Of a DNA stretch of 22,363 bases, positions 3 through 22,363 are shown one piece after another (positions within the stretch are counted from its first letter, which is position 1; each line of letters starts with the position of its first letter). Made by a program: the position numbers and the translations under genes. The DNA is from a virus. The DNA lies in the IMG/VR virus record IMGVR_UViG_3300035660_000091, positions 1 to 22,363 of that record; one strand, given 5' to 3'. The notes beneath the pieces are model-generated. The model was not told where the DNA came from. It ran no database searches and saw only the letters and a program-made list of their open reading frames with translations.

Positions 3-209
3 CTGACCATCCCATCGTCCCTGACCCTAGCCTTCCCCGTTGGGACGAATATTTTGGTTGAACGTCTCGGCGCGGGCACACTGACTATTGCGGGAGCGGC
101 GGGCGTAACGCTACAGGGGGCGTCATTAACAGCCCGTGTTCAGTACTCCTTCCTCGGACTTGTTTGCACAGCATTGAACACTTGGGCAGTTTGTGGAGAC
201 ACCACGTGA
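3..209 (+). CDS. Phage virion/tail-fibre-type protein, C-terminal fragment (5' truncated)
   Basis: Frame 3 is open from the window edge to a TGA at 207-209 and gives the last 68 residues of a longer protein. It has a pattern I know from the C-termini of many phage fibre and structural proteins: FPVGTNILVERLGAGTLTI, then GAAGVTL, an ARVQYS segment, and a final W-x-V-x-GD turn (WAVCGDTT). In such proteins this small beta-rich module closes the chain. Its function cannot be fixed without the upstream part. It reads directly toward the lectin-like gene starting at 224, so the two probably belong to one host-contact or decoration group. The weak points are that only a fragment is visible and that the family is recognised by pattern alone. 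Confidence 0.6.
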   Translation: MTIPSSLTLAFPVGTNILVERLGAGTLTIAGAAGVTLQGASLTARVQYSFLGLVCTALNTWAVCGDTT

Positions 210-223
210 CCCCTTGGCAGATT

Positions 224-943
224 ATGCAGACGTTGCGTTACAAGGGAACTCGGGATCCTTTTTTCGCCAATGTTCGATTTCTTCTGCACTTCGACGACCC
301 TGCAAATCCACAGATATTCCCAGACGTCATTGGGAACACTTGGGTACATCAGACCCCTGGATCGGACATCACAAATCTCCAAGTATCGAATACTCAAGCC
401 GCAGTATCTAGTGCTGGAAGTCTGCGTGTAAAGAGTGCCGGAGGAACGTCATCAGACTACACTCTTAGCGCGAGTCCCCCCATTGGAGGAAACTACTCCA
501 TGGGTGCTGGCAACCTATTCACACTAGAGGGGTGGATTTGGTGGACTGGGGACATAAACTCCAGATTAGGTCTGGCGTCCGTGTATAACTCAATATCGTC
601 AGAAATAATCGCGATAAAGTTCAACACTACTAATCAATTCCGATTTTTTACAGCATTTGGCAGCAATCACGACGGCTTTGTTAATCCCCCTCTGAATCAG
701 TGGGTACACCTAGCGATGACATATGATGGAACCACGAAGTATTGGTTCGTCAATGGTGTTCTTCAGGGATCAGTAGTGACGGGCGCTGGTGCGACGCAAA
801 CAATCGCGACCTATTTGATGCAGAGCATTGCGTCTGGAGGCAACCCTCCATATGCGTACACTGATGACGTTAGGTTTACAGTCGGAGTGTGCCGATACAC
901 GTCCAATTTTTCTGTTCCAACCGCCCCCTATCCAAACTCATGA
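224..943 (+). CDS. LamG/concanavalin A-like lectin-domain virion protein
   Basis: This encodes a 239-residue protein with a laminin-G/concanavalin-like jelly-roll. Near the N-terminus is DPFFANVRFLLHFD, the usual opening of phage LamG-like proteins. The middle has FTLEGWIWW, then WVHLAMTYDG and YWFVNGVLQG, the paired strands of LamG-3-type domains. It ends with DDVRFTVGVCRYTSNF and PTAPYPNS, also typical. Known relatives are phage structural or adhesion proteins that may bind carbohydrate, so receptor or surface-glycan contact is the likely role. I chose ATG 224 because the recognisable domain starts just after it and it clears the stop of the upstream gene at 209; a TTG at 164 would extend the protein by 20 residues that resemble nothing. 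No strong ribosome site is visible for either. The stop overlaps the next start (ATGA). Confidence 0.75.
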   Translation: MQTLRYKGTRDPFFANVRFLLHFDDPANPQIFPDVIGNTWVHQTPGSDITNLQVSNTQAAVSSAGSLRVKSAGGTSSDYTLSASPPIGGNYSMGAGNLFTLEGWIWWTGDINSRLGLASVYNSISSEIIAIKFNTTNQFRFFTAFGSNHDGFVNPPLNQWVHLAMTYDGTTKYWFVNGVLQGSVVTGAGATQTIATYLMQSIASGGNPPYAYTDDVRFTVGVCRYTSNFSVPTAPYPNS

Positions 944-5435: not shown

Positions 5436-6407
5436 GTGGCAGGTCAAGTCTGGGCAGTGAATTCGCTCGGCGGCTTCATGTATAGCCGTCAGTTGAGCAA
5501 CGTGCTCCGCATGGCAGTCCAACCGCTGGTGAAGTTTCGCCAGTTTGCGGACGTCCGTGACGCGAGTCAACAAGGCAAGAAGAAGGGTGACATCTTCACG
5601 TGGGACGTGTTCTCGGATGTTGCATCGGCTGGTGGCGTGCTTTCGGAAACGAACACAATGCCTGAGACCAACTTCACCATCGTTCAGGGCACCCTGACGA
5701 TGACGGAAGCTGGTAACTCGGTCCCCTACTCGGGCAAGTTGGACAACCTGTCCAAGTTCCCGGTGATGGAACTGATTCAGAAGGTTCTCAAGAACGACGC
5801 CGTCAAGACGTTCGACCGTCTTGCATGGACGCAATTCAACCAGACCCTCCTGCGTGCAATACCCACGGCGGGCACGGATACGGCGGCAGTCACGCTGTAC
5901 ACGAACGGCACGGTGACCGGCACGAACAGCATCGCCTACGGCAATGCACACGCCAAGTCGATCGTCGACACGATGAAGGAACGGAACATCCCGGCCTACC
6001 TCGGCGATGATTACTATGCCCTGGCATGGCCGACGACGCTGCGCTCGTTCAAGAACAACCTGGAAACGATCCACCAGTATTCGGACACCGGCTTCAAGTT
6101 GATCATGAACGGCGAAATCGGGCGTTACGAAAACGTTCGCTACGTCGAGCAGACCAACATCGCCAAGGGAACCGGCACGGACGGCATCACGCAGACTCTG
6201 TGGACCAACGGCAAGTCGGACTGGATTTTCTTCTTCGGCAACGACACCGTCGCTGAGGCCATCGCAGTGCCAGAAGAAATGCGGGGTAAGATCCCGAGCG
6301 ATTATGGTCGTTCAAAGGGCGTCGCGTGGTACTACCTCGGCGGCTTCGGCATCGTTCACACTCTCGCTGCGAACACTCGCATCGTGAAGTGGGATTCTCT
6401 GGCTTAA
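5436..6407 (+). CDS. Major capsid protein, N4gp56-like HK97-fold, 323 aa
   Basis: This is the coat protein that builds the icosahedral shell. It lies right after the scaffold gene and has a strong ribosome site, AAGGAGAT at 5424-5431, ahead of a GTG start at 5436. Features of the N4gp56-like family: an N-terminal arm, KKGDIFTWDVF, the L-x-E-TNTMPETNF segment, YSGKLDNLSKFPVMELI leading into the long spine helix, YYALAWPTTLRSFKNNLE, and a C-terminal GEIGRYENVRYVEQTNI typical of the P-domain/A-domain turn. Codon use shifts here toward C/G-ending codons compared with the portal and scaffold genes, as expected of the most highly expressed phage gene. Only the subfamily is uncertain. Confidence 0.9.
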   Translation: MAGQVWAVNSLGGFMYSRQLSNVLRMAVQPLVKFRQFADVRDASQQGKKKGDIFTWDVFSDVASAGGVLSETNTMPETNFTIVQGTLTMTEAGNSVPYSGKLDNLSKFPVMELIQKVLKNDAVKTFDRLAWTQFNQTLLRAIPTAGTDTAAVTLYTNGTVTGTNSIAYGNAHAKSIVDTMKERNIPAYLGDDYYALAWPTTLRSFKNNLETIHQYSDTGFKLIMNGEIGRYENVRYVEQTNIAKGTGTDGITQTLWTNGKSDWIFFFGNDTVAEAIAVPEEMRGKIPSDYGRSKGVAWYYLGGFGIVHTLAANTRIVKWDSLA

Positions 6408-6842: not shown

Positions 6843-7193
6843 ATGGCAAGCAAGCGCGGAAATGTTCCTGGCCAAAGCGCAGGCCAGATGGCGGGGGAGG
6901 GCGGCAAGGAAAAGTTTGCTGAGCCCTTCGGTGGCGGCATGCCGAAGACCATCGGTGGTCTCGGTGGCCTGCACAACGATATTGGCGAGAAGTCTGGGTT
7001 CCAGACGGATGGCTACATCGACAAGCAAGGCACCCCCTACGGCGAGGCTGCGAAGTTCAACTTCCTGCCGCCCGGTATGGACATCAGCGACCAGGAGAAT
7101 GCGGAAATCCACACGATGCCGCTCAGGAAGCTGGTTGCCGAGTCCTACCCCGGCGACGGTTGGACTCCTGCCCCCCGTGACATCGCTGAGTAA
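6843..7193 (+). CDS. Small virion-associated hypothetical protein A, 116 aa (PPGM-x-I-x-DQ motif)
   Basis: A TAAGGAGA site precedes ATG 6843. The protein is glycine-rich and mostly without regular structure: MASKRGNVPGQSAGQMAGEG, then FGGGMPKTIGGLGGLHNDIG, and the motif FNFLPPGMDISDQ near residues 76-88, followed by an acidic MPLRKLVAESYPGDGW tail. The same F-N-x-x-PPGM-x-I-x-DQ core occurs in the next gene (FNAMPPGMEIADQ), so the two look like diverged tandem paralogues. Its codon bias resembles the coat gene, suggesting high expression. I know no family; a minor head protein or coat-binding linear-motif protein is possible. Confidence 0.6.
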   Translation: MASKRGNVPGQSAGQMAGEGGKEKFAEPFGGGMPKTIGGLGGLHNDIGEKSGFQTDGYIDKQGTPYGEAAKFNFLPPGMDISDQENAEIHTMPLRKLVAESYPGDGWTPAPRDIAE

Positions 7194-7635: not shown

Positions 7636-9366
7636 GTGGTAATGCCCCTCAGTGCGTACATACATCGTACGCAGCTAACTGATGCAAACGGTGTACAGAC
7701 CGAAAACGTTAATCAGGTAGCGACCCTAGTCTGGGACAGCATTGGTCTTGCCTGGGTCAAAGCTACTCAGGCTGGAGGGGGCGGGGGCGGCGGAACGCAA
7801 TATGCCGAGGGAACAACCATCAACCCGGCAACGGGTACGGTGGCCCTTGGAAAGAACACGTCAAATGTTGTATCCGCCCTTTCGCTTGATGGGTCCGGTA
7901 ATCTTAACGTAAACCTTGCCGCAGGGACTATCTCTGGCGGCAATGCTGCTGCGTCTCCGACTGGCGCGGCTGTTCCAGCGAGCGCGGGCTATACGGGATG
8001 GAAGTCTGGTGCGAATCTAGTTGGTGTAGAGCTAACTAACGCCCTCCCCGTTCAGCCCGGGACAGGTGCGGTCTTCCCTGCGGGGCAGAATGCCCTGATT
8101 TCCACCAACAATAGCAGCACTACTCCTCTCGGTGCTGGAGGCACATTCACAGGTACTTCTGAGGACATCACAGGATACTCCACTATCGGGATAATGGCCT
8201 TTTCCGATAAGGCTGGCACAGTATTTATTGATTACTCAACTAATAGCACGAATTGGGACTATACCGATAGTATCCCGCTGGCAGCGAACACGGCAATAAC
8301 GATTCAGAACGAGCCGCACGGGCAATACTATCGCATAAGGCTTGTGAATGGTGGCGTAGCGCAGGGTGTCTTGCGCTTGCAAACCATCTATCAGTCTCTG
8401 GCAATGACCCAGAACAAGGTGCAGATATCGGACACCTTGGCTGCGAACGATACTGCCATACTGACCAAGGGTGTCATCGTCGGGGTTACTACCGGAGGCG
8501 GTGGCGGATACGTTGATGTAAAGGTTAATCCAAGTGGCGCACTGACCGCAGACGTCACACAATCCGGGACTTGGACTGTTCAGCAAGGCACGCCGCCGTG
8601 GTCGGTATCACAGTCTGGCGCGTGGAGCATAGGCAGAACCTGGGCGCTGAGCAGTGGCACTGATTCTGTTACCGCTATCGGCACATTCTGGCAGGCTACT
8701 CAGCCCGTAAGCGGCCCGCTGACGGATACGCAACTTCGCCTGACTCCGGTGCCAGTAAGCGGAACATTCTGGCAGGCTACTCAACCCGTAAGCGGCACAT
8801 TCTGGCAGGCTACGCAACCCGTATCGCTGGCGTCTACTACCATCACGGGGTCTGTAGCAGTCACCGGGCCGCTTACAGACACGCAACTTCGTGCGTCAGC
8901 GGTGCCCGTGTCGTTGGCATCAACTACGATTACGGGATCGGTTGCAGTCACTGGCCCACTGACCGATACTCAACTGCGGGCGTCGGCTGTACCTGTTAGT
9001 CTTGCGTCCACGACCATCACTGGATCGGTTGCAGTCACCGGTCCCCTTACAGACGCTCAACTTCGCGCCACGCCAGTACCGACCAAAGAAACACGATCTA
9101 CAGCCAATGCGCGAACTAGCGTTGCGGGCGCTGCGGCGGATACTCTCATTCTGGCGTCGAACGCTAACCGACTAGGAGCTACGGTCTACAATGACTCTGC
9201 GGCAATCTTGTATCTATCGCTCGGTACTGCTGCTGCGTCTACGACTGACTTCACGGTAAAGATGGTGGCGGACGCGTATTATGAAGTGCCCTTCGGCTAC
9301 ACAGGTGCGATTAGAGGCATATGGGCATCTGCTACAGGCAGTGCTCGCGTCGGGGAGATTACCTAA
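7636..9366 (+). CDS. Repeat-containing phage virion/tail-fibre-type protein, 576 aa
   Basis: A large beta-rich structural protein. Residues 1-45 form a small N-terminal domain, followed by a seven-glycine linker. The middle is Thr/Ser/Gly/Ala-rich, including a probable beta-sandwich around YSTIGIMAFSDKAGTVFIDY and YYRIRLVNGG. Residues ~345-482 hold two repeat types: GTFWQATQPVSG three times and a 29-residue SLASTTITGSVAVTGPLTD unit three times. A compact C-terminal domain with ATVYNDSAAILYLSLGTAAAS and YYEVPFGYTGAIRGIWASA follows, a pattern I know from many phage virion proteins. Host-contact fibre or head-surface protein is plausible. The start is GTG 7636 or ATG 7642; a weak GAGA site at 7624 slightly favours 7636. 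Confidence 0.7.
   Translation: MVMPLSAYIHRTQLTDANGVQTENVNQVATLVWDSIGLAWVKATQAGGGGGGGTQYAEGTTINPATGTVALGKNTSNVVSALSLDGSGNLNVNLAAGTISGGNAAASPTGAAVPASAGYTGWKSGANLVGVELTNALPVQPGTGAVFPAGQNALISTNNSSTTPLGAGGTFTGTSEDITGYSTIGIMAFSDKAGTVFIDYSTNSTNWDYTDSIPLAANTAITIQNEPHGQYYRIRLVNGGVAQGVLRLQTIYQSLAMTQNKVQISDTLAANDTAILTKGVIVGVTTGGGGGYVDVKVNPSGALTADVTQSGTWTVQQGTPPWSVSQSGAWSIGRTWALSSGTDSVTAIGTFWQATQPVSGPLTDTQLRLTPVPVSGTFWQATQPVSGTFWQATQPVSLASTTITGSVAVTGPLTDTQLRASAVPVSLASTTITGSVAVTGPLTDTQLRASAVPVSLASTTITGSVAVTGPLTDAQLRATPVPTKETRSTANARTSVAGAAADTLILASNANRLGATVYNDSAAILYLSLGTAAASTTDFTVKMVADAYYEVPFGYTGAIRGIWASATGSARVGEIT
8680..8820 (+). repeat. Three FWQATQPV-type coding repeats
   Basis: The segment GTFWQATQPVSG begins at 8680, 8761 and 8794, the last copy running straight into the longer repeat array. 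Copies one and two are separated by a diverged single GPLTDTQLRLTPVPVSG unit. At DNA level the FWQATQPV core (ACATTCTGGCAGGCTAC and following bases) is almost identical between copies, with single third-position changes. Such motifs recur in phage fibre-like proteins and probably form beta turns in a repetitive shaft. Confidence 0.85.
8821..9081 (+). repeat. Three tandem 87-bp coding repeats, conserved as protein but not as DNA
   Basis: Units lie at 8821-8907, 8908-8994 and 8995-9081, each encoding a 29-residue V-SLASTTITGSVAVTGPLTD-x-QLRA-x-x-VP unit. Units one and two are identical in all 29 residues, yet I count 22 of 29 codons that differ, all synonymously. Unit three has three residue changes, all at the C-terminal end (T to A, S to T, A to P). 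The units have no gap between them and form a regular shaft-like array. Confidence 0.9.
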
Positions 9367-11264: not shown

Positions 11265-11630
11265 GTGAGCAAACTAGACCGAGAGCGCCCCTATGCCACG
11301 ATTGTTGGCCACTCCATTGCTCGGTATGAGCAAAATGGGCTTCTGTATGCGGGAAATGATGAGCTGATTGGCACACCTAAGACAGTCGCAGCCAGTGTGC
11401 AGGTTGAGGATAGTTCCCGCATAATGACTGATAGTCTTGCTGGTGCGATGCTTTTTCTTAGAAATGTGCTGAAGGAAGGACCACTTTCTAAGGCTGTCGT
11501 GTACAAAGAGTCAGAAAACAACCTTCAGTTTTGGGATAGCGTGCGTGATGCAGCCTTAGAGTTGAAAGTACACAAGTTCACCTATAAGGGCAACGAAATG
11601 TGGAAATTGCCAGATGAGGAGATGGCGTGA
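11265..11630 (+). CDS. Hypothetical phage protein, 121 aa
   Basis: It starts at GTG 11265 with TTAGGAGT upstream. The N-terminal part RPYATIVGHSIARYEQNGLLYAG looks like a small strand-rich domain carrying an aromatic ARYEQ-x-G-x-x-Y segment found in other small phage proteins of unknown role. A helix (LAGAMLFLRNVLKEGPL) and a lysine-rich C-terminal strand (LKVHKFTYKGNEMWKLP) follow. The stop overlaps the GTG start of the methyltransferase gene (GTGA), so the two are probably translated together. No catalytic motif is visible. Confidence 0.6.
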   Translation: MSKLDRERPYATIVGHSIARYEQNGLLYAGNDELIGTPKTVAASVQVEDSSRIMTDSLAGAMLFLRNVLKEGPLSKAVVYKESENNLQFWDSVRDAALELKVHKFTYKGNEMWKLPDEEMA

Positions 11631-12169
11631 AACCACTTTCTCTAGTTGGAGAAGATGCGCAGGAGAGTATGATCCTCGCCGCTTCAACAACCCCACTAGA
11701 AGGATGTATCGTTGAGGTAGGTGTATACCGAGGGGGAACGGCGTGGCAGCTTGCGGCCCTAGCCCGAGTGCGCGGCGTTCCACTCTACTTGTATGACACG
11801 TTCACTGGTATTCCATATCGAAATGTGGAGAAGGGAGATACTCATGTGGTTGGCGATTTTTCGGACGTCAACGAGGCGGAAGTGCGGGCGGCTATACCCG
11901 ACGCCATTTTCTGCAAGGGCGTGTTTCCTGATACCCTTGTGGAAATGGGGCCTATATCATTTGTCCATTGCGATTGTGATCAATACCAAGCAGTTAAGGA
12001 CGTGATCACGCACCTGTACCCAAAACTACTCCCTGGAGGCATGATAGTGTTCGATGACTATGCGTGTCTTGAGGGAGCTACCCGCGCAGTAGACGAACAC
12101 TTCGTGATCACTGAGGCCACAAAGAGCAACAAGGTTCTGATTCGTGCTGGTGTAACGGAGACAAGATAA
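11627..12169 (+). CDS. TylF-like SAM-dependent methyltransferase, 180 aa
   Basis: A class I methyltransferase similar to the TylF/macrocin O-methyltransferase family, whose members methylate sugar hydroxyls. Seen: the SAM-binding glycine loop VEVGVYRGGTAWQLA (residues ~29-43), LYLYDTFTGIP (TylF proteins carry DTF-x-G-[LI]-P), then VHCDCDQYQAVKDVITHLYP and LLPGGMIVFDDY, matching the family's D-x-D-x-Y and PGG-x-x-x-x-DDY region that supplies metal-binding acids. At 180 residues it is shorter than typical TylF proteins (~250) and lacks the usual N-terminal extension. The start is GTG 11627 with GAGGAG upstream, overlapping the previous stop; the TAA overlaps the ATG of the fusion enzyme. Methylation of a sugar or glycan fits; the acceptor is unknown. 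Confidence 0.8.
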   Translation: MKPLSLVGEDAQESMILAASTTPLEGCIVEVGVYRGGTAWQLAALARVRGVPLYLYDTFTGIPYRNVEKGDTHVVGDFSDVNEAEVRAAIPDAIFCKGVFPDTLVEMGPISFVHCDCDQYQAVKDVITHLYPKLLPGGMIVFDDYACLEGATRAVDEHFVITEATKSNKVLIRAGVTETR

Positions 12170-13731
12170 TGGTCTGGAAAATTGACAATCCGCAGTGCAA
12201 CGAGTCTAAGAAGATCGTCTGGGAGGTTGCCCCCTATCTGCGTGGCCGTGGAGTTGATTTGGGAGCGGGGGACTTTAAGATTCTCCCGCACGCCATAAGT
12301 GTGGATAACATGAACCACGCTCAGTTCGGGTTCACTCAAAAGCCGGACATTCTTGCAGATGTGTCAAAGCTAGATATGCTTGCCAGTGGGTCCATGGATT
12401 GGGTCTACAGCAGCCACACGCTAGAGCACGTGGAGGATATGGGAGCCACTCTTCGTGAATGGTGGCGCATTGTCAAGCAGGGTGGTCTGCTGATTATGTA
12501 CCTTCCACATGCGGACTTTTACCCGAACATGGGCCAGCCGGGAGCCAATCCTGACCACAAGCGCGACTTTCGGCCAAAGGACGTCATTGCCGCTATGCCC
12601 TCCCACGGATGGGACTTGCTTGAATGCCAAGAGCGGAACGAAGACTTTGAATACAGCTTCCTTCTGATCTTCAAGAAGATGCCTGGGCGCATAACCTCAG
12701 AGTCTTGGAAGCGCCCCAAACCTACGAAGACTGCGTTAGTTGTCCGATATGGTGCGTTTGGTGACTTAATGCAGGCGTCCAGCGTCATCAAAGGGTTGAA
12801 GGATCAAGGGTTCCATGTGACTCTGCATTGTGCACCCCCTGGATGTGTCGTGGTCGAGACTGACCCTAACATCGACCAGATGATTCTGTTTGATAAGGAT
12901 CAAATACCCAATACTAATCTTGGGGATTTCTGGGCATGGCAGCGTAAGAAATACGACCGCTTTGTCAACCTTAGTGAGTCGGTCGAGGGTTCCTTGCTAG
13001 CCATGCCAGGACGGGCTCAACATGCTTGGTCTCCCGCAGTTCGACACAGCATGATGAGCCGAAACTATCTGGAGTTCCAGCATGCCATTGCTGACGTACC
13101 CCACAAGCCACAGGTCAAATTCTATGCCACATTGGAGGAGAAGGGGTGGGCCAGGAAAGAGCGCGCAAAGATGGGCGCTGGCCCCATTATCATGTATTCG
13201 TTGTCTGGTAGCAGCGTCCATAAGACGTGGGCGGGGCTGGACAATATCATTGCTAGCGCTCTTTTGCACTTCCCAACGTCTCAGATTGTCCTCTGTGGTG
13301 GGCCGGAGTGTGTGATACTGGAGCAAGGGTGGGAGAAAGAGCCCCGCGTAACCGAGACCAGCGGTAAGTGGTCCATCCGTCAAAGTCTGGCGTTCTTGGA
13401 GCAGGCGGACCTTGTGATTGGGCCTGAGACTGGTGTTCTCAACGCTGCATCCTGCATGCCTATGCCGAAGGTCATTTTCCTTAGCCACTCCAGCGAAGAG
13501 AACCTGACCCGAGATTGGGTAAATACATCTGCCCTATGGGCAAAGAAAACCGAGTGTCCTGGCCGGTCTGCGGGTGTGCCTGCCTGTCACCAGATGCATT
13601 ACGGATGGGCGCACTGCAAATTAGATCCAGTGACTAGCACAGCGCAGTGCCAAGCGGATATTTCTGTAGAGGACGCATGGAACGCCGTGGCCTTCCATCT
13701 ACTAGAGCTTACTAAGGAGAAGGTGGCATGA
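12169..13731 (+). CDS. Methyltransferase-GT9 glycosyltransferase fusion protein, 520 aa
   Basis: Two enzyme domains in one chain. Residues ~12-175 are a class I methyltransferase: GVDLGAGDFK (29-37, SAM loop), SSHTLEHVED (81-90, the LEH-x of Methyltransf_11-type enzymes), and WRIVKQGGLLIMYLPH. Residues ~185-515 match glycosyltransferase family 9 (ADP-heptose:LPS heptosyltransferase-like): ALVVRYGAFGDLMQASSVI near the domain start corresponds to the GDxL loop, and VIGPETGVLNAASCMPMPKVIF (~416-437) to the donor-binding D-T-G-x-x-H-x-A region. Here the loop histidine is replaced (ETGVLNAA), so catalysis or donor choice may differ. GGAG (12157) precedes ATG 12169. GT9 enzymes act on lipopolysaccharide core sugars in bacteria; in a phage, a related sugar-nucleotide donor is likely but unproven. 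Confidence 0.8.
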   Translation: MVWKIDNPQCNESKKIVWEVAPYLRGRGVDLGAGDFKILPHAISVDNMNHAQFGFTQKPDILADVSKLDMLASGSMDWVYSSHTLEHVEDMGATLREWWRIVKQGGLLIMYLPHADFYPNMGQPGANPDHKRDFRPKDVIAAMPSHGWDLLECQERNEDFEYSFLLIFKKMPGRITSESWKRPKPTKTALVVRYGAFGDLMQASSVIKGLKDQGFHVTLHCAPPGCVVVETDPNIDQMILFDKDQIPNTNLGDFWAWQRKKYDRFVNLSESVEGSLLAMPGRAQHAWSPAVRHSMMSRNYLEFQHAIADVPHKPQVKFYATLEEKGWARKERAKMGAGPIIMYSLSGSSVHKTWAGLDNIIASALLHFPTSQIVLCGGPECVILEQGWEKEPRVTETSGKWSIRQSLAFLEQADLVIGPETGVLNAASCMPMPKVIFLSHSSEENLTRDWVNTSALWAKKTECPGRSAGVPACHQMHYGWAHCKLDPVTSTAQCQADISVEDAWNAVAFHLLELTKEKVA

Positions 13732-14687
13732 GTACTTCTGGCACCTATGCGTTCGCAGTAACCCGCGACGACATTATTCGGCAAGCTATGCTGAATATTG
13801 GCAAGTTAGATCCTTATGAGAGCCCCACTGCTGTCCAGACGCAGGACATTGGTATTGCTCTCAACATGATGGTTAAGCAGTGGATGGGCAAGGTAGACTT
13901 TGCTCCCGGTTTGAAGATGTGGACCCGTAAGCATGGGCATCTATTTCTTCAGAACAACACTGGCAGATATGTGATTGGTCCTGGCAGCACGACGGGGTGG
14001 ACTAATGACTATGTCTATCCGACTCTTACCGCTACGGCAGCGCCTGCTGCGACAACACTCGTGTTGTCTAGCATTTCTGGAGTAGCTGTAGGATACTATA
14101 TCGGCATTGTGCTTGATAGCGGGGCGCTGTATTGGACGACTGTAGCCACTGCTCCCTCGGTTACGATTACGATTACTGCGGGTCTTCCTAGCCAAGCAGC
14201 CGCGAACGCGCAAGTCTTTGTTTTCCAGACTATTGCTCAGCAGCCTCTGTTCATCGAGACCGCTGTGCTTCGGGACACAAACTTCAGTGATACGCCCTTG
14301 AGGATGATGACTGTGCAGGACTACGATTTTCTGCCAAACAAGGCTGACTCAACAAATCTTCAAGATCCCACTGCAATTTACTATGAGAATCAACTAGGAA
14401 ACTCATTCTTGTATACCGACGCAGGGGCGTCTCAGGACGTCACTAAGCATCTCGCCCTGACCTATATGGAGCCTGTGCAAGATTTCAATACTGCGCTGGA
14501 TAATCCGTATTTTCCGCAAGAGTGGTATCTGCCTCTGTGTTGGGGACTGGCGAAGAATATATGTCCGCAGTTCAACAGGCCGTGGACCCCACTTATGGGA
14601 GAGAACTTCATTACTGCCCTAAGGATTGCTCAACAAAAGGATGCGGAGAAGACTGGCATATACTTCCAGCCCGGTGCGGAGGACTAA
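13728..14687 (+). CDS. Head-closure/tail accessory protein, P22 gp4-like, 319 aa
   Basis: In P22-type phages gp4 binds the portal after packaging and starts assembly of the tail hub. This protein opens with VTRDDIIRQAMLNIGKLDPYE and ALNMMVKQWMGK, the helical N-terminus I associate with gp4-like connectors. Residues ~100-172 form an inserted Ala/Thr-rich beta domain (TTLVLSSISGVAVGYYIGIVLDSG, TVTITITAGLPSQAA) that occurs in several phage connector proteins. The C-terminal helices (WYLPLCWGLAKNICPQF, FITALRIAQQKDAEKT) complete it. AAGGAG at 13714-13719 precedes ATG 13728, which overlaps the upstream TGA. Adjacency to a gp10-like gene supports the call. Confidence 0.7.
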   Translation: MSTSGTYAFAVTRDDIIRQAMLNIGKLDPYESPTAVQTQDIGIALNMMVKQWMGKVDFAPGLKMWTRKHGHLFLQNNTGRYVIGPGSTTGWTNDYVYPTLTATAAPAATTLVLSSISGVAVGYYIGIVLDSGALYWTTVATAPSVTITITAGLPSQAAANAQVFVFQTIAQQPLFIETAVLRDTNFSDTPLRMMTVQDYDFLPNKADSTNLQDPTAIYYENQLGNSFLYTDAGASQDVTKHLALTYMEPVQDFNTALDNPYFPQEWYLPLCWGLAKNICPQFNRPWTPLMGENFITALRIAQQKDAEKTGIYFQPGAED

Positions 14688-16118
14688 ATGCGCCCAATTC
14701 CTTTGTTCGGGTCTAGCTTAAAGTCACTCAGCTCCTCTGTGTCAGCACAGAGGAGAGTAAACTGCTTCTACGATGTCCGTCAAGATGAAGACAAGACGAA
14801 GATTGTTCTGCGCGGCACGCCAGGAGCATTCGCGGCTGCAAGTGTTCCGGATCAACCTATTCGGGGATGGCGGGTAGTTGGCGACTATCTGTATGTAGTG
14901 GCGGGGAGCAGTGTATTTCAGGTCGCCTCTGACCTGACAAGCGTGCTGCTCGGCACGATAATCAATAGTGGGCAGTATGTTGATGTAGACGACAATTCGC
15001 TTCAACTTACTCTAGTGGATGGAGTTCGGGGATACTATCTTACCCTCCCGTCTGGAGCGCCCACACTCATTGCAGATGTCAACTTCCCCAATGGGTGCAG
15101 AACAATCTGTACCCTAGATAGCCGATCTATTGCAGGCGCGCCGAATAGCCGTATTTTCTACGTTAGTGAGCAGTTGAATAGTTCATTGTGGACCCCGGCT
15201 ATCTTTGGTGCGAAGGAAAATACGAGTGATAATCTCGTTGCAGTTGACGTTCTGAACGGCGCTCTGGTGTTGTGGGGTGTGCAGAGCATAGAGTTCTGGC
15301 AGGATGTGGGCGCAGCGCCTAACCCATACCAACGCATCAATGGTGCATCGCAGACATGGGGGCTAGCCGCTATTTGGAGCAGGGCGGCGCTCAACAACAC
15401 GATGATTTTCCTTGGGCAAAATCCGCAGGGTGGAATCCAAGTGCTGATGCTGCATGGCTACGTGCCGACTAGGGTCAGCAATTCGGACCTTGAGAACATT
15501 ATCACAGGATTTCCAGTCTATAGTGACGCAGTGGCGCTGACGTATATGATAGATGGGCACCCCATGTATCAGCTTACGTTTCCATCTGCGGGGCGGTCAT
15601 TCTTGTTCGACGCATCTACAGGCTTCTGGTTTGAGACACAAACGGGAGTGACGGATTACACTCGGCACTTTGGAAACTTGAGCGTAGTGTTCAACACCAA
15701 GAATTATATCTGTGACTCTACTACTGGCACGATCTATCAGCTTAGGAACAGCCAGTATACAGACAATGGAACTCCCATTAAGCGAATAGCTACGAGCCGC
15801 CACGTTCGGCTAGATGGCAATGAGTTTGGTGTATCTGAACTCGTGCTCGAAATGGACACTGGCTCTACTCTTCTGTCTGTGGGTCAAGGGTCTAATCCGC
15901 AACTCATGCTAAAGATAAGCAAGGACAATGGGAAAACCTTTGGTCCTGAGCGATGGGCTAGTATGGGCAGGATAGGGGAGTATCAAAGGCGCGTCATTTG
16001 GGATCAACTTGGGTCTGCAAGAGACTTTGTGTTTCAGTTTTCACTTACTGACCCTGTGCCGTTTACCATCAACTTAGCTGAGGCTACGGTTAGTCCTGGC
16101 ACAGAGGTAGGACAATGA
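14688..16118 (+). CDS. Packaged-DNA stabilisation protein, P22 gp10-like, 476 aa
   Basis: gp10 of P22 forms the hub that plugs the portal and carries the tailspike. The match is best at both ends. The N-terminus SSVSAQRRVNCFYDV is the conserved opening of this family. The C-terminal third has LMLKISKDNGKTFGPERWASMGRIGEY and then RVIWDQLGSARDFVFQFSLTDPVPFTI, the most conserved block of gp10 proteins. The middle is a beta-propeller-like repeat rich in W/F strands (ALVLWGVQSIEFWQDVG, FLGQNPQGGIQVLML). The length is near that of P22 gp10 (472). GGAGG lies five bases before ATG 14688, and the stop overlaps the next ATG. A 10-bp hairpin lies inside codons 15-23. Confidence 0.85.
   Translation: MRPIPLFGSSLKSLSSSVSAQRRVNCFYDVRQDEDKTKIVLRGTPGAFAAASVPDQPIRGWRVVGDYLYVVAGSSVFQVASDLTSVLLGTIINSGQYVDVDDNSLQLTLVDGVRGYYLTLPSGAPTLIADVNFPNGCRTICTLDSRSIAGAPNSRIFYVSEQLNSSLWTPAIFGAKENTSDNLVAVDVLNGALVLWGVQSIEFWQDVGAAPNPYQRINGASQTWGLAAIWSRAALNNTMIFLGQNPQGGIQVLMLHGYVPTRVSNSDLENIITGFPVYSDAVALTYMIDGHPMYQLTFPSAGRSFLFDASTGFWFETQTGVTDYTRHFGNLSVVFNTKNYICDSTTGTIYQLRNSQYTDNGTPIKRIATSRHVRLDGNEFGVSELVLEMDTGSTLLSVGQGSNPQLMLKISKDNGKTFGPERWASMGRIGEYQRRVIWDQLGSARDFVFQFSLTDPVPFTINLAEATVSPGTEVGQ
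14732..14755 (+). other. Perfect inverted repeat inside the 5' end of the gp10-like gene
   Basis: CTCCTCTGTG (14732-14741) and CACAGAGGAG (14746-14755) pair perfectly around the tetraloop TCAG, about 45 bases into the coding region. It overlaps codons for the conserved SSSVSAQRR segment. The second arm ends in GAGGAG, a ribosome-site-like sequence that would be hidden in the stem. It may affect translation or transcription pausing, or be chance within coding sequence. Confidence 0.6.
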
Positions 16119-16516
16119 TCTTTCCTCCACCTATCGACGCGCTAGTGCTAGGGCAAGACAAAGAGTTTAATGCTGCCTGGAAGAAGTGGTTTAACCAGGT
16201 CTTCTTTTCTATATTCGCAGTACAGAACTATGCCAAGTATTTCTATACACTTTCGCCTAGCTACCCACTCCAATTTCCAGCAAACACTGAAATACTACAG
16301 ATAGATGCGGCTGGCGTTATCGCTGCTGCTACTGTCGCGCTCCCTGCATACCCCGTTGATGGGCAACGAATCTATATTGCAAGCACGCAAACCATCACGG
16401 CGCTTACACTCACGTCAGCGTACACGATAAAGAACGCCCCCACTGCTGGAGTTGCAGGCGTGTGCATCGCGTACTACTTTTCGAAGACAAATCTTACTTG
16501 GTATAGGCTGGCGTAG
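16115..16516 (+). CDS. Small phage structural protein with C-terminal beta module, 133 aa
   Basis: ATG 16115 overlaps the TGA of the gp10-like gene and has GAGGTAGG upstream. The first ~50 residues contain a tryptophan/phenylalanine-rich helix (AAWKKWFNQVFFSIFAVQNYAKYF) that could anchor to the tail hub. From residue ~60 there is a module of the form ILQIDAAGVIAAATVALPAYPVDGQRI, STQTITALTLTSAYTI and a terminal TWYRLA, which I recognise from the C-termini of many short phage proteins. The position, directly after the stabilisation protein, suggests a tail-hub or fibre-attachment part (compare P22 gp26), but I see no long coiled coil, so that is only a guess. Confidence 0.6.
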   Translation: MIFPPPIDALVLGQDKEFNAAWKKWFNQVFFSIFAVQNYAKYFYTLSPSYPLQFPANTEILQIDAAGVIAAATVALPAYPVDGQRIYIASTQTITALTLTSAYTIKNAPTAGVAGVCIAYYFSKTNLTWYRLA

Positions 16517-19787: not shown

Positions 19788-21628
19788 TGAAAGAGCCCTG
19801 GGAAGTCGCGGCAGGCGGGGGAGAAGATACGCCCGACCCGGCCAGTAAAGAGCCCTGGGAGATTGCGGCGGGAACTTCGGTTACACCGAAGTCTGCTGGC
19901 GCTGGTCGTGGATTCGTGCGCCCCTCTCCACCCGAGGAAAAGCCGGGGTTCTTAGCTAGGGCTAAGAAAGAGATTCTTGATGTGCCAGCCACGGGCAGGA
20001 AGTTAATCTCTGACCTTAGCAGCACGTTGTCTGAAAGCCTTACGCCTCCCAAGGAGCTTACAGACGAAACACCCAAAGGCTCTCAGACGCCCTGGGAGGG
20101 CTTAAAAACCCTGGCAGGGGGTAAGGGCCTAGGTGGTATTGTTGAGGGCGTAGGAGCGGGCGTAGCGGGCGCGGCGGGCGCTATAGGAGGCGGGCTTGCC
20201 GGGGCTGGACGTGCGGCGGGCGGCTACCTGCTTGGAGGTGAGTCAGCAGACACAGCACTGCAAGCGGGAGCGGACGTAGTGGAGGGTGCGCGTAAATTTA
20301 CTGAGTATGAGCCCAGAACCCCGATGGGCAAGTACACCACTCAAGTTCTAGGTGCTCCTATAGCAGTTGCGAAGACCATAGGTGGAGCAGAGGGTGCGCT
20401 GTACGGACGCCTTGCTGGAAACGAGGAAGCTGGCCGCGCCATAGGGGAGGCGGGAGGTGAGGGAGCCGCATCCATCGCAGGGCTGCTCAAAGCTAAGTCT
20501 GTGGCTAAGGCTGCTGATCGCGGACCTGCGCGTGCATTACCTCAGCATGACGCTGCCATTAAAGAGGCCATGGATGCGGGGTATAAAGGAATGCCCGAGG
20601 GGCAGACCATGCTTTCGCTCGCTAAGGAGCCCGAGCTTAAGAACAAGATAACACTAGAAAACCAAACGACGTCTGACCGACTCATGCGTAAGCACGGGGG
20701 CTTTGCAGTAGATGAGGTCATAAATGCGGACACGATTGCTGCGAAAGAGGCACCGCACAATGCGGTCTATCAAGAATTGCGGGACATCAAGGGCTACCAT
20801 ACGATAGACAAGAAGGTCATTGATGCAGTCAACGACCTAAGCAAGAAAGATCGGAGAATTCAGCAATACTCGCCAGAGTGGCAAATTGACCCCGAGCTCT
20901 CTAGGCTACAGGGCACCATCACTAAGATGAAGACTGCCCCGCCTGACGTACTTCTTGACATGATGAAGAAGCTACGCAGTGAGGCACGGCATGACCTTTC
21001 ACGCAAGAACATGATTGGGGAATCGCAAGTAGACCTAGCGCACGCTAGGCTGAAAGCCGCCTCTGCGATCCAAGACATGATGGATAGGCAACTGACGCAA
21101 GCAGCCAAGCGTCGGCCTGATATCTCTCACGACGTCATCCCGCGTCTTCAAGCTGCTAGAGAAGCACTTGCCAAGATTGCAGATGTTGAGCGGTACACTA
21201 ACCTTGAAACTGGGAAAGTAAACGCATCCAAGATTAAGACTGATTTCAAAAACGGTAAGAAGATGAGCGGTGAGTTGCTTACCATCGCTAAGGCAGCAAA
21301 CTCGATGAAGGGTAATGTAGTTCGCAGCACTGAGGGTATGATTCCTGCCTCTGAAATTAAGATGAGCGATACTGCTAGGGCTGGATTCTCTATGGGCGCT
21401 GCCGCACTTAAAGGACATGGGGCCATTAAGACTGCGGGCGTCTTAGGCGCGATGACTGGTCCTGTTGCGCGAAAAATTGCTGCTAGTGACACATACCAGA
21501 AACACTTTGTCAAACCTAGCGATCGCCCTACGGCTAAGGGTAAGGCTCAGGCCGCGACCGGAGCACTGACAATGGGTGCCGCACAGAATACGCCATGGAG
21601 GCCACAAGATGAAGGTCCTGATCGTTGA
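19787..21628 (+). CDS. Large ejection-type virion protein with PWE repeats and glycine-rich hydrophobic region, 613 aa
   Basis: ATG 19787 overlaps the previous TGA and has GGGAG eight bases upstream; a TTG at 19772 is weaker. The N-terminus repeats KEPWEVAAG and KEPWEIAAG 19 residues apart, and TPWEGL follows near residue 100. Residues ~116-152 are a Gly/Ala-rich hydrophobic stretch (VEGVGAGVAGAAGAIGGGLA) that could insert into a membrane, then EPRTPMGKYTTQVLGAPIAVA, a segment I have seen in large podovirus internal proteins. The rest is charged helix (KKLRSEARHDLSRKNMIG and similar). It probably is the third ejection protein and may help form the channel through the host membrane. No lytic-transglycosylase motif is visible. 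Confidence 0.65.
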   Translation: MKEPWEVAAGGGEDTPDPASKEPWEIAAGTSVTPKSAGAGRGFVRPSPPEEKPGFLARAKKEILDVPATGRKLISDLSSTLSESLTPPKELTDETPKGSQTPWEGLKTLAGGKGLGGIVEGVGAGVAGAAGAIGGGLAGAGRAAGGYLLGGESADTALQAGADVVEGARKFTEYEPRTPMGKYTTQVLGAPIAVAKTIGGAEGALYGRLAGNEEAGRAIGEAGGEGAASIAGLLKAKSVAKAADRGPARALPQHDAAIKEAMDAGYKGMPEGQTMLSLAKEPELKNKITLENQTTSDRLMRKHGGFAVDEVINADTIAAKEAPHNAVYQELRDIKGYHTIDKKVIDAVNDLSKKDRRIQQYSPEWQIDPELSRLQGTITKMKTAPPDVLLDMMKKLRSEARHDLSRKNMIGESQVDLAHARLKAASAIQDMMDRQLTQAAKRRPDISHDVIPRLQAAREALAKIADVERYTNLETGKVNASKIKTDFKNGKKMSGELLTIAKAANSMKGNVVRSTEGMIPASEIKMSDTARAGFSMGAAALKGHGAIKTAGVLGAMTGPVARKIAASDTYQKHFVKPSDRPTAKGKAQAATGALTMGAAQNTPWRPQDEGPDR

Positions 21629-22363
21629 CCAGGATGGGGTGGGCCTCTCATTCGCGCTTCGGGCGTACGAGGCAGGACATCAGGTACGCTGGTTTATTAA
21701 GCCGAAGCCCTCTATTTCTAAAGAGACGGGTCTGGGCGTTAAGGGTGTCGAGAAGGTAGACGCTTGGATCCCCCATGTTGCATGGGCCGATCTAAGAATT
21801 TCAACGTCGAACGACGACTACATCCCCAAGATGGAGTTCTTTGCCAAGAGGGGCATGCCTTTCTTTGCGCCTAGCCCCGCCTCAGCAGGACTAGAGATTT
21901 CCCGCGCCAGTGGGATGAAACTTCTTGAGTCCGTAGGCATTGAGTGTGCTCCGTACAAGACATTCAAGACAATGCAGGAGGCCGAGCGTCACGTCATTAA
22001 GGCGGATGAGCGCTTTGTCTTCAAAACGCTTGGGGACAACGAGGACAAAGCACTGACTTACGTCAGCAAGTCGCCAGCAGACTTAGTTGCTTGGATACGC
22101 CGCACCCCTCCCCCAAAGGGAGAGGTCATGCTACAGACTTTCATTGATGGCATTGAGATGGGGGTGTCCCGCTTCCTTGGCAAGTCTGGGTGGGTGGGGC
22201 AATGGAATGAGAGTTTCGAGCATAAGAAATTGATGCCGAGTAACTATGGTCCGAATACGGGCGAAATGGGGACAGTTGCCTACTTCACAGAGACGTCGAA
22301 GCTCGGCACTGAGACGTTAGGAAAGCTTGAGAAGAAGCTTCTGGCTTTAGGACATCGTGGGGA
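21609..22363 (+). CDS. PurD-like ATP-grasp ligase, 5' part (3' truncated by window end)
   Basis: The frame is open from ATG 21609 to the end of the window (251 codons), with GGAGG (21597-21601) at ideal spacing, inside the last codons of the previous gene. It begins MKVLIVDQDGVGLSFALRAY, a dinucleotide-fold-like start as in glycinamide ribonucleotide synthetase. Then come LEISRASGMKLLESVGIECAPY, FVFKTLGDNEDKALTYV (the ATP-grasp lysine and loop), EVMLQTFIDGIEMGVSRF, and GPNTGEMGTVAYF, all in PurD order. ATP-grasp ligases join a carboxylate to an amine using ATP. Full-length PurD has about 430 residues, so the catalytic end lies outside. Free-standing ATP-grasp proteins occur in other phages, but the reaction here is unknown. 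Confidence 0.8.
   Translation, partial: MKVLIVDQDGVGLSFALRAYEAGHQVRWFIKPKPSISKETGLGVKGVEKVDAWIPHVAWADLRISTSNDDYIPKMEFFAKRGMPFFAPSPASAGLEISRASGMKLLESVGIECAPYKTFKTMQEAERHVIKADERFVFKTLGDNEDKALTYVSKSPADLVAWIRRTPPPKGEVMLQTFIDGIEMGVSRFLGKSGWVGQWNESFEHKKLMPSNYGPNTGEMGTVAYFTETSKLGTETLGKLEKKLLALGHRG

What the first reader, a model, noticed from the sequence alone, without database searches (positions are those of the whole stretch)
11627..13731. Sugar-modification cassette embedded in the virion operon
A TylF-like methyltransferase and a methyltransferase-GT9 fusion sit back to back (TAATG overlap) between a fibre/secreted-protein cluster and the P22-like tail-hub genes, in the same orientation. TylF enzymes methylate sugars and GT9 enzymes transfer heptose-like sugars in lipopolysaccharide, so the pair could build or cap a methylated glycan on the virion or on the host surface (for example to block superinfection or mask antigens). 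That purpose is inferred from context.
Basis: partly seen in the sequence, partly recalled or inferred. Interest (0 to 1): 0.75.

Follow-up and report, generated by a model that had tools for sequence, protein, structure and literature searches.

The report
Phage methyltransferase-glycosyltransferase in capsid operon
A large group of uncultured bacterial viruses carries, as a fixed part of the gene block that builds the virus shell, a two-in-one enzyme that attaches a sugar and adds a methyl group, so these viruses probably decorate their own particles (or possibly the host surface) with methylated sugars; the target has not been shown.

Summary
A TylF-family methyltransferase (11627-12169) overlaps, by TAATG, a 520-aa fusion (12169-13731) of a class I SAM methyltransferase (res. 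1-173) and a GT9/GT-B glycosyltransferase (res. 184-518). The GT9 catalytic Asp and Lys and a C-terminal four-Cys motif are kept. The two genes differ sharply in status. The fusion (MTGT9) is a core gene of the window's phage group: in loci fetched by capsid gene alone, 45 of 45 that reach downstream head/tail genes carry it. The same fusion sits directly after the capsid gene in an unrelated lambda-like siphovirus lineage, which the tree explains by one transfer, and in prophages of Paraburkholderia and Aromatoleum. TylF, and in other loci a GT2, are accessories, mostly adjacent to MTGT9. No full-length relative turned up in GenBank phages, and no paper was found. The best reading is a late, virion-directed glycosylation/methylation enzyme, functionally like the O-methyltransferase plus glycosyltransferase block of Corndog-type mycobacteriophages, whose capsid and tail tube are reported glycosylated. 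Acceptor and donor were not shown, so host LPS remains the main rival. I rate it a new variant of a known kind.

The parts
12169..13731 (+). MTGT9: fusion of class I SAM methyltransferase (res. 1-173) and GT9 glycosyltransferase (res. 184-518); core gene of the phage group
   Evidence: Pfam; structure model and fold matches; alignment A1; universality
11627..12169 (+). TylF-like O-methyltransferase; accessory gene, usually adjacent to MTGT9 when present
   Evidence: Pfam TylF 1.2e-19; placement; alignment A6
11265..11630 (+). O121: small protein of unknown function, recurrent just upstream of MTGT9 (or of the fibre slot)
   Evidence: synteny; no family match
13728..14687 (+). Q319: protein directly downstream, probably head-tail adaptor by position (phrog_12985, unknown function)
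   Evidence: synteny
14688..16118 (+). Hc3: head closure / packaged-DNA stabilisation protein (P22-type)
   Evidence: phrog_578 1.4e-89
5436..6407 (+). MCP: major capsid protein of the PTXU04/N4-like kind, candidate acceptor
   Evidence: 54% identity to annotated capsid protein of PTXU04 and Vibrio phage 219E41.1
6421..6831 (+). G136: Ser/Thr-rich jelly-roll protein after MCP, probable capsid cement/turret protein, candidate acceptor
   Evidence: structure model, HFTV1 turret Z 8.7 and KHP40 cement Z 8.0, both borderline; 24% Ser+Thr
7636..9366 (+). J576: repeat-rich, Ser/Thr-rich fibre-like protein in the variable slot, candidate acceptor
   Evidence: sequence; 24% Ser+Thr; no Pfam match

Best explanation
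MTGT9 is a late-expressed, bifunctional glycan enzyme of the virion-assembly operon. Its GT9 half transfers a sugar from a host-made nucleotide sugar (most likely ADP-heptose, by family) to an acceptor made at the same time, most likely a capsid, cement or fibre protein. Its fused methyltransferase half O-methylates that sugar. TylF adds a second methylation in the phages that have it, and GT2 an extra sugar in others. The result would be virions carrying a short methylated glycan. Shown here: the two domains, conserved catalytic positions, fixed place in the head module, universality in the group, and a shared position in a second head type. Inferred: expression timing, enzymatic activity, donor, acceptor and purpose.
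For: Universal in the window's lineage: 45/45 capsid-fetched loci with downstream markers, plus L102 and L144 on checking their contigs. Same slot (capsid gene, MTGT9, connector) in an unrelated lambda-like head module, one clade in the tree; stays next to the head genes when the tail type changes. Distances track portal and other core genes. Catalytic Asp199 and Lys352 aligned to WaaF, SAM motifs invariant. TylF and GT2 accessories cluster at it. Precedent: cluster O mycobacteriophages carry O-methyltransferase plus glycosyltransferases among head genes (PMC4351075) and such enzymes are reported to modify capsid and tail tube (PMC11600133 citing Freeman et al. 2023). A GT9-fold enzyme with protein acceptors exists (TibC, PMC4358343).
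Against: No direct evidence of a glycan. No capsid residue separates lambda-like phages with and without MTGT9. Closest sequence matches are LPS heptosyltransferases, though weak. Related PTXU04-like capsids and 14 lambda-like loci manage without it. Two loci have it upstream of the portal.
Confidence: 0.55

Rival explanations
1. Host-surface modification: MTGT9 (with TylF) caps or alters the host LPS core during the late phase, so that released progeny do not stick to debris or superinfecting phages cannot adsorb.
For: GT9 is the family of LPS heptosyltransferases; best sequence and fold matches are WaaF/WaaC-like. Hosts that could be named are nearly all LPS-bearing Proteobacteria.
Against: Scores far below the LPS heptosyltransferase I and III cutoffs, 18.6 vs 185 and 15 vs 170 bits. 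Fixed placement among head genes in two head types is not how known serotype-conversion genes are placed (own knowledge). One fragment in a Conexibacter MAG (Actinomycetota, no LPS) exists, but it is a 3.3-kb contig and may be mis-binned.
Confidence: 0.27
2. The enzyme modifies phage DNA bases (glycosylated, methylated hypermodification) rather than protein or LPS.
For: Phage glycosyltransferases of GT-B fold that act on DNA bases exist (own knowledge).
Against: No base hydroxymethylase or nucleotide-modifying gene was recognised among the window genes scanned, though the window is partial; the gene lies in the head module; the closest fold is heptosyltransferase.
Confidence: 0.04
3. The fusion is a repurposed enzyme fold that serves as a structural or assembly protein of the head, without catalysis.
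For: Fixed position among head genes.
Against: Catalytic and cofactor positions of both halves are invariant over diverse relatives; in a subgroup the halves are separate genes, both kept; other sugar-enzyme genes cluster beside it.
Confidence: 0.07

Closest known systems
Virion-glycosylation genes of cluster O (Corndog) and F1 (Che8) mycobacteriophages
   Same: O-methyltransferase plus glycosyltransferases; in cluster O they lie inside the virion-structure operon, and the enzymes were not found in virions (PMC4351075); capsid and tail tube reported modified (PMC11600133)
   Different: Actinobacterial hosts; separate genes rather than an MT-GT9 fusion; homology to MTGT9 not tested residue by residue, and the primary 2023 paper was not held; here the modification itself is unproven
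TibC / bacterial autotransporter heptosyltransferases (BAHT)
   Same: GT-B heptosyltransferase fold (Z 20.3); catalytic Asp and Lys; four C-terminal Cys
   Different: No N-terminal beta-barrel (an MT domain instead); Cys spacing differs (C-x2-C-x9-C-x10-C in the lambda-like set vs C-x2-C-x15-C-x11-C); acceptor unknown
LPS heptosyltransferases WaaF / WaaC (GT9)
   Same: Fold (Z 23.7 and 20.3) and catalytic positions
   Different: Far below the NCBIfam cutoffs for heptosyltransferase I and III; fused MT; phage-borne in a head operon
TylF macrocin O-methyltransferase family
   Same: Pfam match and conserved acidic motifs of the 180-aa neighbour
   Different: Phage-borne, accessory, short version; substrate unknown

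Membership tests
Glycosyltransferase family 9 (fold/superfamily level) | GT-B fold with GT9 profile match | tested here: met
   Pfam Glyco_transf_9 23.1 bits vs cutoff 22; Z 24.7 to 3tov, 23.7 to WaaF
Glycosyltransferase family 9 (fold/superfamily level) | Catalytic Asp in the N-lobe Gly-Asp motif and phosphate-binding Lys in the C-lobe | tested here: met
   D199 invariant in A1, A2 and A4, K352 likewise, aligned to WaaF Asp and Lys
LPS heptosyltransferase I/II/III (equivalog level) | NCBIfam curated score cutoff | tested here: not met
   18.6 vs 185.3 bits for I, 15 vs 170.2 for III; no match to II listed
Bacterial autotransporter heptosyltransferase (BAHT, TibC) | Four-cysteine iron finger in the C-lobe | tested here: inconclusive
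   Four Cys invariant but different spacing; metal not testable; motif may be general in GT9
Bacterial autotransporter heptosyltransferase (BAHT, TibC) | N-terminal beta-barrel needed for activity | tested here: not met
   Residues 1-173 fold as a class I methyltransferase
Class I SAM methyltransferase | Rossmann-like MT fold with glycine-rich motif I and acidic residue after strand 2 | tested here: met
   Pfam Methyltransf_11 1e-9; G32, G34, D46 invariant; Z up to 16.4
TylF O-methyltransferase | TylF profile with conserved D-x-D and DD metal motifs | tested here: met
   1.2e-19, 71 bits vs cutoff 23; D116, D118, D143, D144 invariant
Phage virion-glycosylation system | MT and GT genes inside the virion-structure operon, conserved in the phage group | tested here: met
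Phage virion-glycosylation system | Glycans covalently on virion proteins, lost when the GT gene is removed | not testable with these tools
   Needs virions and mass spectrometry; here only gene content and position are comparable

The most novel reading that the evidence does not exclude
MTGT9 is the founder of a phage protein-glycosyltransferase family: a self-contained glycosylate-and-methylate fusion that uses host ADP-heptose to heptosylate capsid-surface proteins, core to one uncultured phage group and moved once into an unrelated lambda-like head module. It would be a Gram-negative, heptose-based counterpart of the glycan coats of mycobacteriophages.
Probability: 0.3. Interest if true: 0.82.

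Novelty: new variant of a known kind. Interest (0 to 1): 0.64.

Why it matters
Glycosylated phage particles are documented in the papers found here only for mycobacteriophages. A fused MT-GT9 that is obligatory in one large uncultured phage group, and retained in the head module of a second, would make virion glycosylation in Gram-negative phages directly testable. Named isolate prophages (Paraburkholderia rhynchosiae WSM 3937, Paraburkholderia sp. C35, Aromatoleum anaerobium LuFRes1) carry it. It also gives annotators a marker: 200 full-length copies were in hand here, with no full-length relative among GenBank phages.

Tried and rejected
1) Fixed two-gene cassette: rejected, TylF is optional and changes side. 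2) Mobile isolated insertion: rejected for MTGT9. 3) Locating the acceptor by comparing lambda-like MCPs with and without MTGT9 (54 vs 7 dereplicated): no Ser/Thr/Asn/Tyr/Lys column or insertion separates them, at 51% mean identity. 4) Ser/Thr-richness of G136 as an acceptor signature: not discriminating, since PTXU04_00012 is 24% as well. 5) BAHT membership: the C4 motif is suggestive, but the N-terminal beta-barrel is absent. 6) A converse scan with a single lambda-like MCP returned 4 loci and was redone with an alignment. 7) An early gap of 4 b between MCP and MTGT9 in lambda-like phages was measured to the open frame, not the start codon; from the start codon the median is 106 b. 8) dN/dS for window/L003 and L035/L036 used unaligned codons and is discarded. 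9) Literature on heptosyltransferase with phage-encoded virion glycosylation: no hit.

Full report
OBSERVATION. The window is a 22,363-base virus record. The two genes are present as described: TylF 11627-12169 and a 520-aa fusion 12169-13731 sharing TAATG. TylF matches Pfam TylF at 1.2e-19. The fusion matches Methyltransf_11 (1e-9) and Glyco_transf_9 (5e-5), both above Pfam cutoffs. The junctions O121/TylF (GTGA) and MTGT9/Q319 (ATGA) also overlap, so four genes read as one coupled block.

DOMAINS. An AlphaFold model from 28 relatives has pLDDT 88.6 and pTM 0.87. Residues 184-518 match GT9 heptosyltransferases (3tov Z 24.7; WaaF Z 23.7; WaaC and TibC about 20) and residues 1-173 match class I methyltransferases (Z up to 16.4). 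Invariant positions include G32, G34, D46 and D77 of the MT half, and the 'RYGAFGD' Asp199, Lys352, E420-T-G422 and four C-terminal Cys of the GT half. Profile alignment puts D199 and K352 opposite the WaaF Asp and Lys. Scores are far below the cutoffs for LPS heptosyltransferases I and III. dN/dS against the nearest relative is about 0.036 for the fusion and 0.04 for TylF.

CONSERVATION, WINDOW LINEAGE. A scan with the fusion found 45 IMG/VR loci. In those that hold the neighbouring genes, the order MCP - small head genes - variable fibre slot - MTGT9 - Q319 - Hc3 recurs. To avoid ascertainment, loci were also fetched with the capsid protein and with Hc3 alone. Of the capsid-fetched loci, 45 of 45 that reach downstream markers carry MTGT9. 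The rest end too early, except L102, whose contig has it further along; L144 from the Hc3 scan likewise. These counts are contigs, some closely related, not independent events. In one subgroup the fusion is split at residue ~172 into two genes with both halves kept. Distances of MTGT9 correlate with portal (Mantel r 0.79), Q319 (0.70), Hc3 (0.71) and MCP (0.61) over 29 non-redundant loci. It therefore behaves as a vertically inherited core gene. The GenBank phages with the same capsid kind (PTXU04, HelliStehle_Bas95, Vibrio 219E41) have no such gene in the fetched head region, and no full-length relative was found in 50,697 phage records.

SECOND LINEAGE. The GTDB scan returned 21 loci. Several lie in prophages or contigs with the window's capsid kind (Paraburkholderia, Aromatoleum, Pseudothauera; Zoogloea, Polaromonas, Nevskia MAGs). 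Others lie in a different architecture: GpA terminase, lambda portal, a protease-HK97 capsid fusion, then MTGT9, then Phage_attach, tail tube and tape measure. A profile scan found the same order in most of 80 further viral loci. There MTGT9 starts a median of 106 b after the capsid stop. Fetched by capsid alone, 54 loci have MTGT9 and 14 more distant ones (capsid 52-57% identical) go straight from capsid to connector; four of their records searched in full lack it. In a tree of 114 copies the lambda-like set is one clade (SH-aLRT 99, one change). One transfer between head types followed by retention at the same slot is the simplest reading. A third tail type, with an SU10 adaptor, follows MTGT9 in L041 and L162. 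In two loci (L222, L225) the gene lies upstream of the portal instead. Thus the gene follows the head genes, not a tail type. In a sample of 398 Burkholderiaceae genomes only the query prophage had it.

ACCESSORIES. TylF is overlapping or within 600 b of MTGT9 in 16 of 21 contigs that hold both, upstream or downstream, in both lineages (my count); the phage TylFs share 42-53% identity with the window's. A GT2 glycosyltransferase sits just upstream in six loci. The variable slot otherwise holds mostly fibre-like, often Ser/Thr-rich proteins. This suggests a core enzyme with optional glycan tailoring.

MECHANISM. The best-supported account is virion-directed glycosylation with methylation. Direct precedent: in cluster O mycobacteriophages an O-methyltransferase and three glycosyltransferases lie between portal and protease and are not in virions (PMC4351075), and the capsid and tail tube are reported modified (PMC11600133 citing Freeman et al. 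2023; also PMC11256854). GT9-like enzymes can use protein acceptors: TibC heptosylates autotransporters and carries a four-Cys iron finger (PMC4358343), and MTGT9 has an invariant C4 motif. That motif is not diagnostic and TibC's beta-barrel is missing, so BAHT membership is not claimed. The acceptor is unknown. Capsid columns do not discriminate. The probable cement protein G136 (jelly-roll, HFTV1 turret Z 8.7, KHP40 cement Z 8.0, both borderline) is Ser/Thr-rich, but so is its counterpart in PTXU04, which has no MTGT9 in its head region. Host LPS modification is the main rival.

VERDICT. It works like a virion-glycosylation system; membership in that class needs mass spectrometry.

Noticed in passing
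window 21576-22363 (cut by window end); full copy at L144:4657-6018: A PurD-like ATP-grasp protein (GARS_A 2.1e-7, plus GARS_C in the full copy; purD 43.6 bits vs cutoff 288) recurs downstream of the internal-protein genes in about 20 loci. A second recurrent enzyme gene of this operon, function unexplained.
   Followed up: partly
L156 (MCP parts at 7091 and 8381) and L165 (2471 and 3754): The major capsid gene is interrupted at the same residue (~95) by about 1 kb in two distant hosts, Aromatoleum and a Thermodesulfobacteriota MAG: looks like an intron, intein or homing-endonuclease insertion.
   Followed up: no
L222, L225: In two lambda-like contigs MTGT9 lies between terminase and portal rather than after the capsid gene.
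   Followed up: no
L155:3343-6058: MTGT9-like open frames occur in tandem after a TylF gene, apparently a duplication.
   Followed up: no
L075, L085-L088, L091, L129, L132, L136, L138, L143: Where the fusion is split at the domain boundary, 11 loci hold the same 88-aa ORF of unknown function between the two halves.
   Followed up: partly
L315:14081-15853 and 16127-16495: The P. rhynchosiae prophage ends with a large DUF7657 protein next to a DUF6538 fragment that may be an integrase remnant; the DUF7657 gene could be a separate surface-modifying gene, which was not tested.
   Followed up: partly
window 164-943: LamG/ConA-like lectin domain protein (Laminin_G_3 8.2e-9) upstream of the head genes; relatives recur in a few loci.
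   Followed up: no
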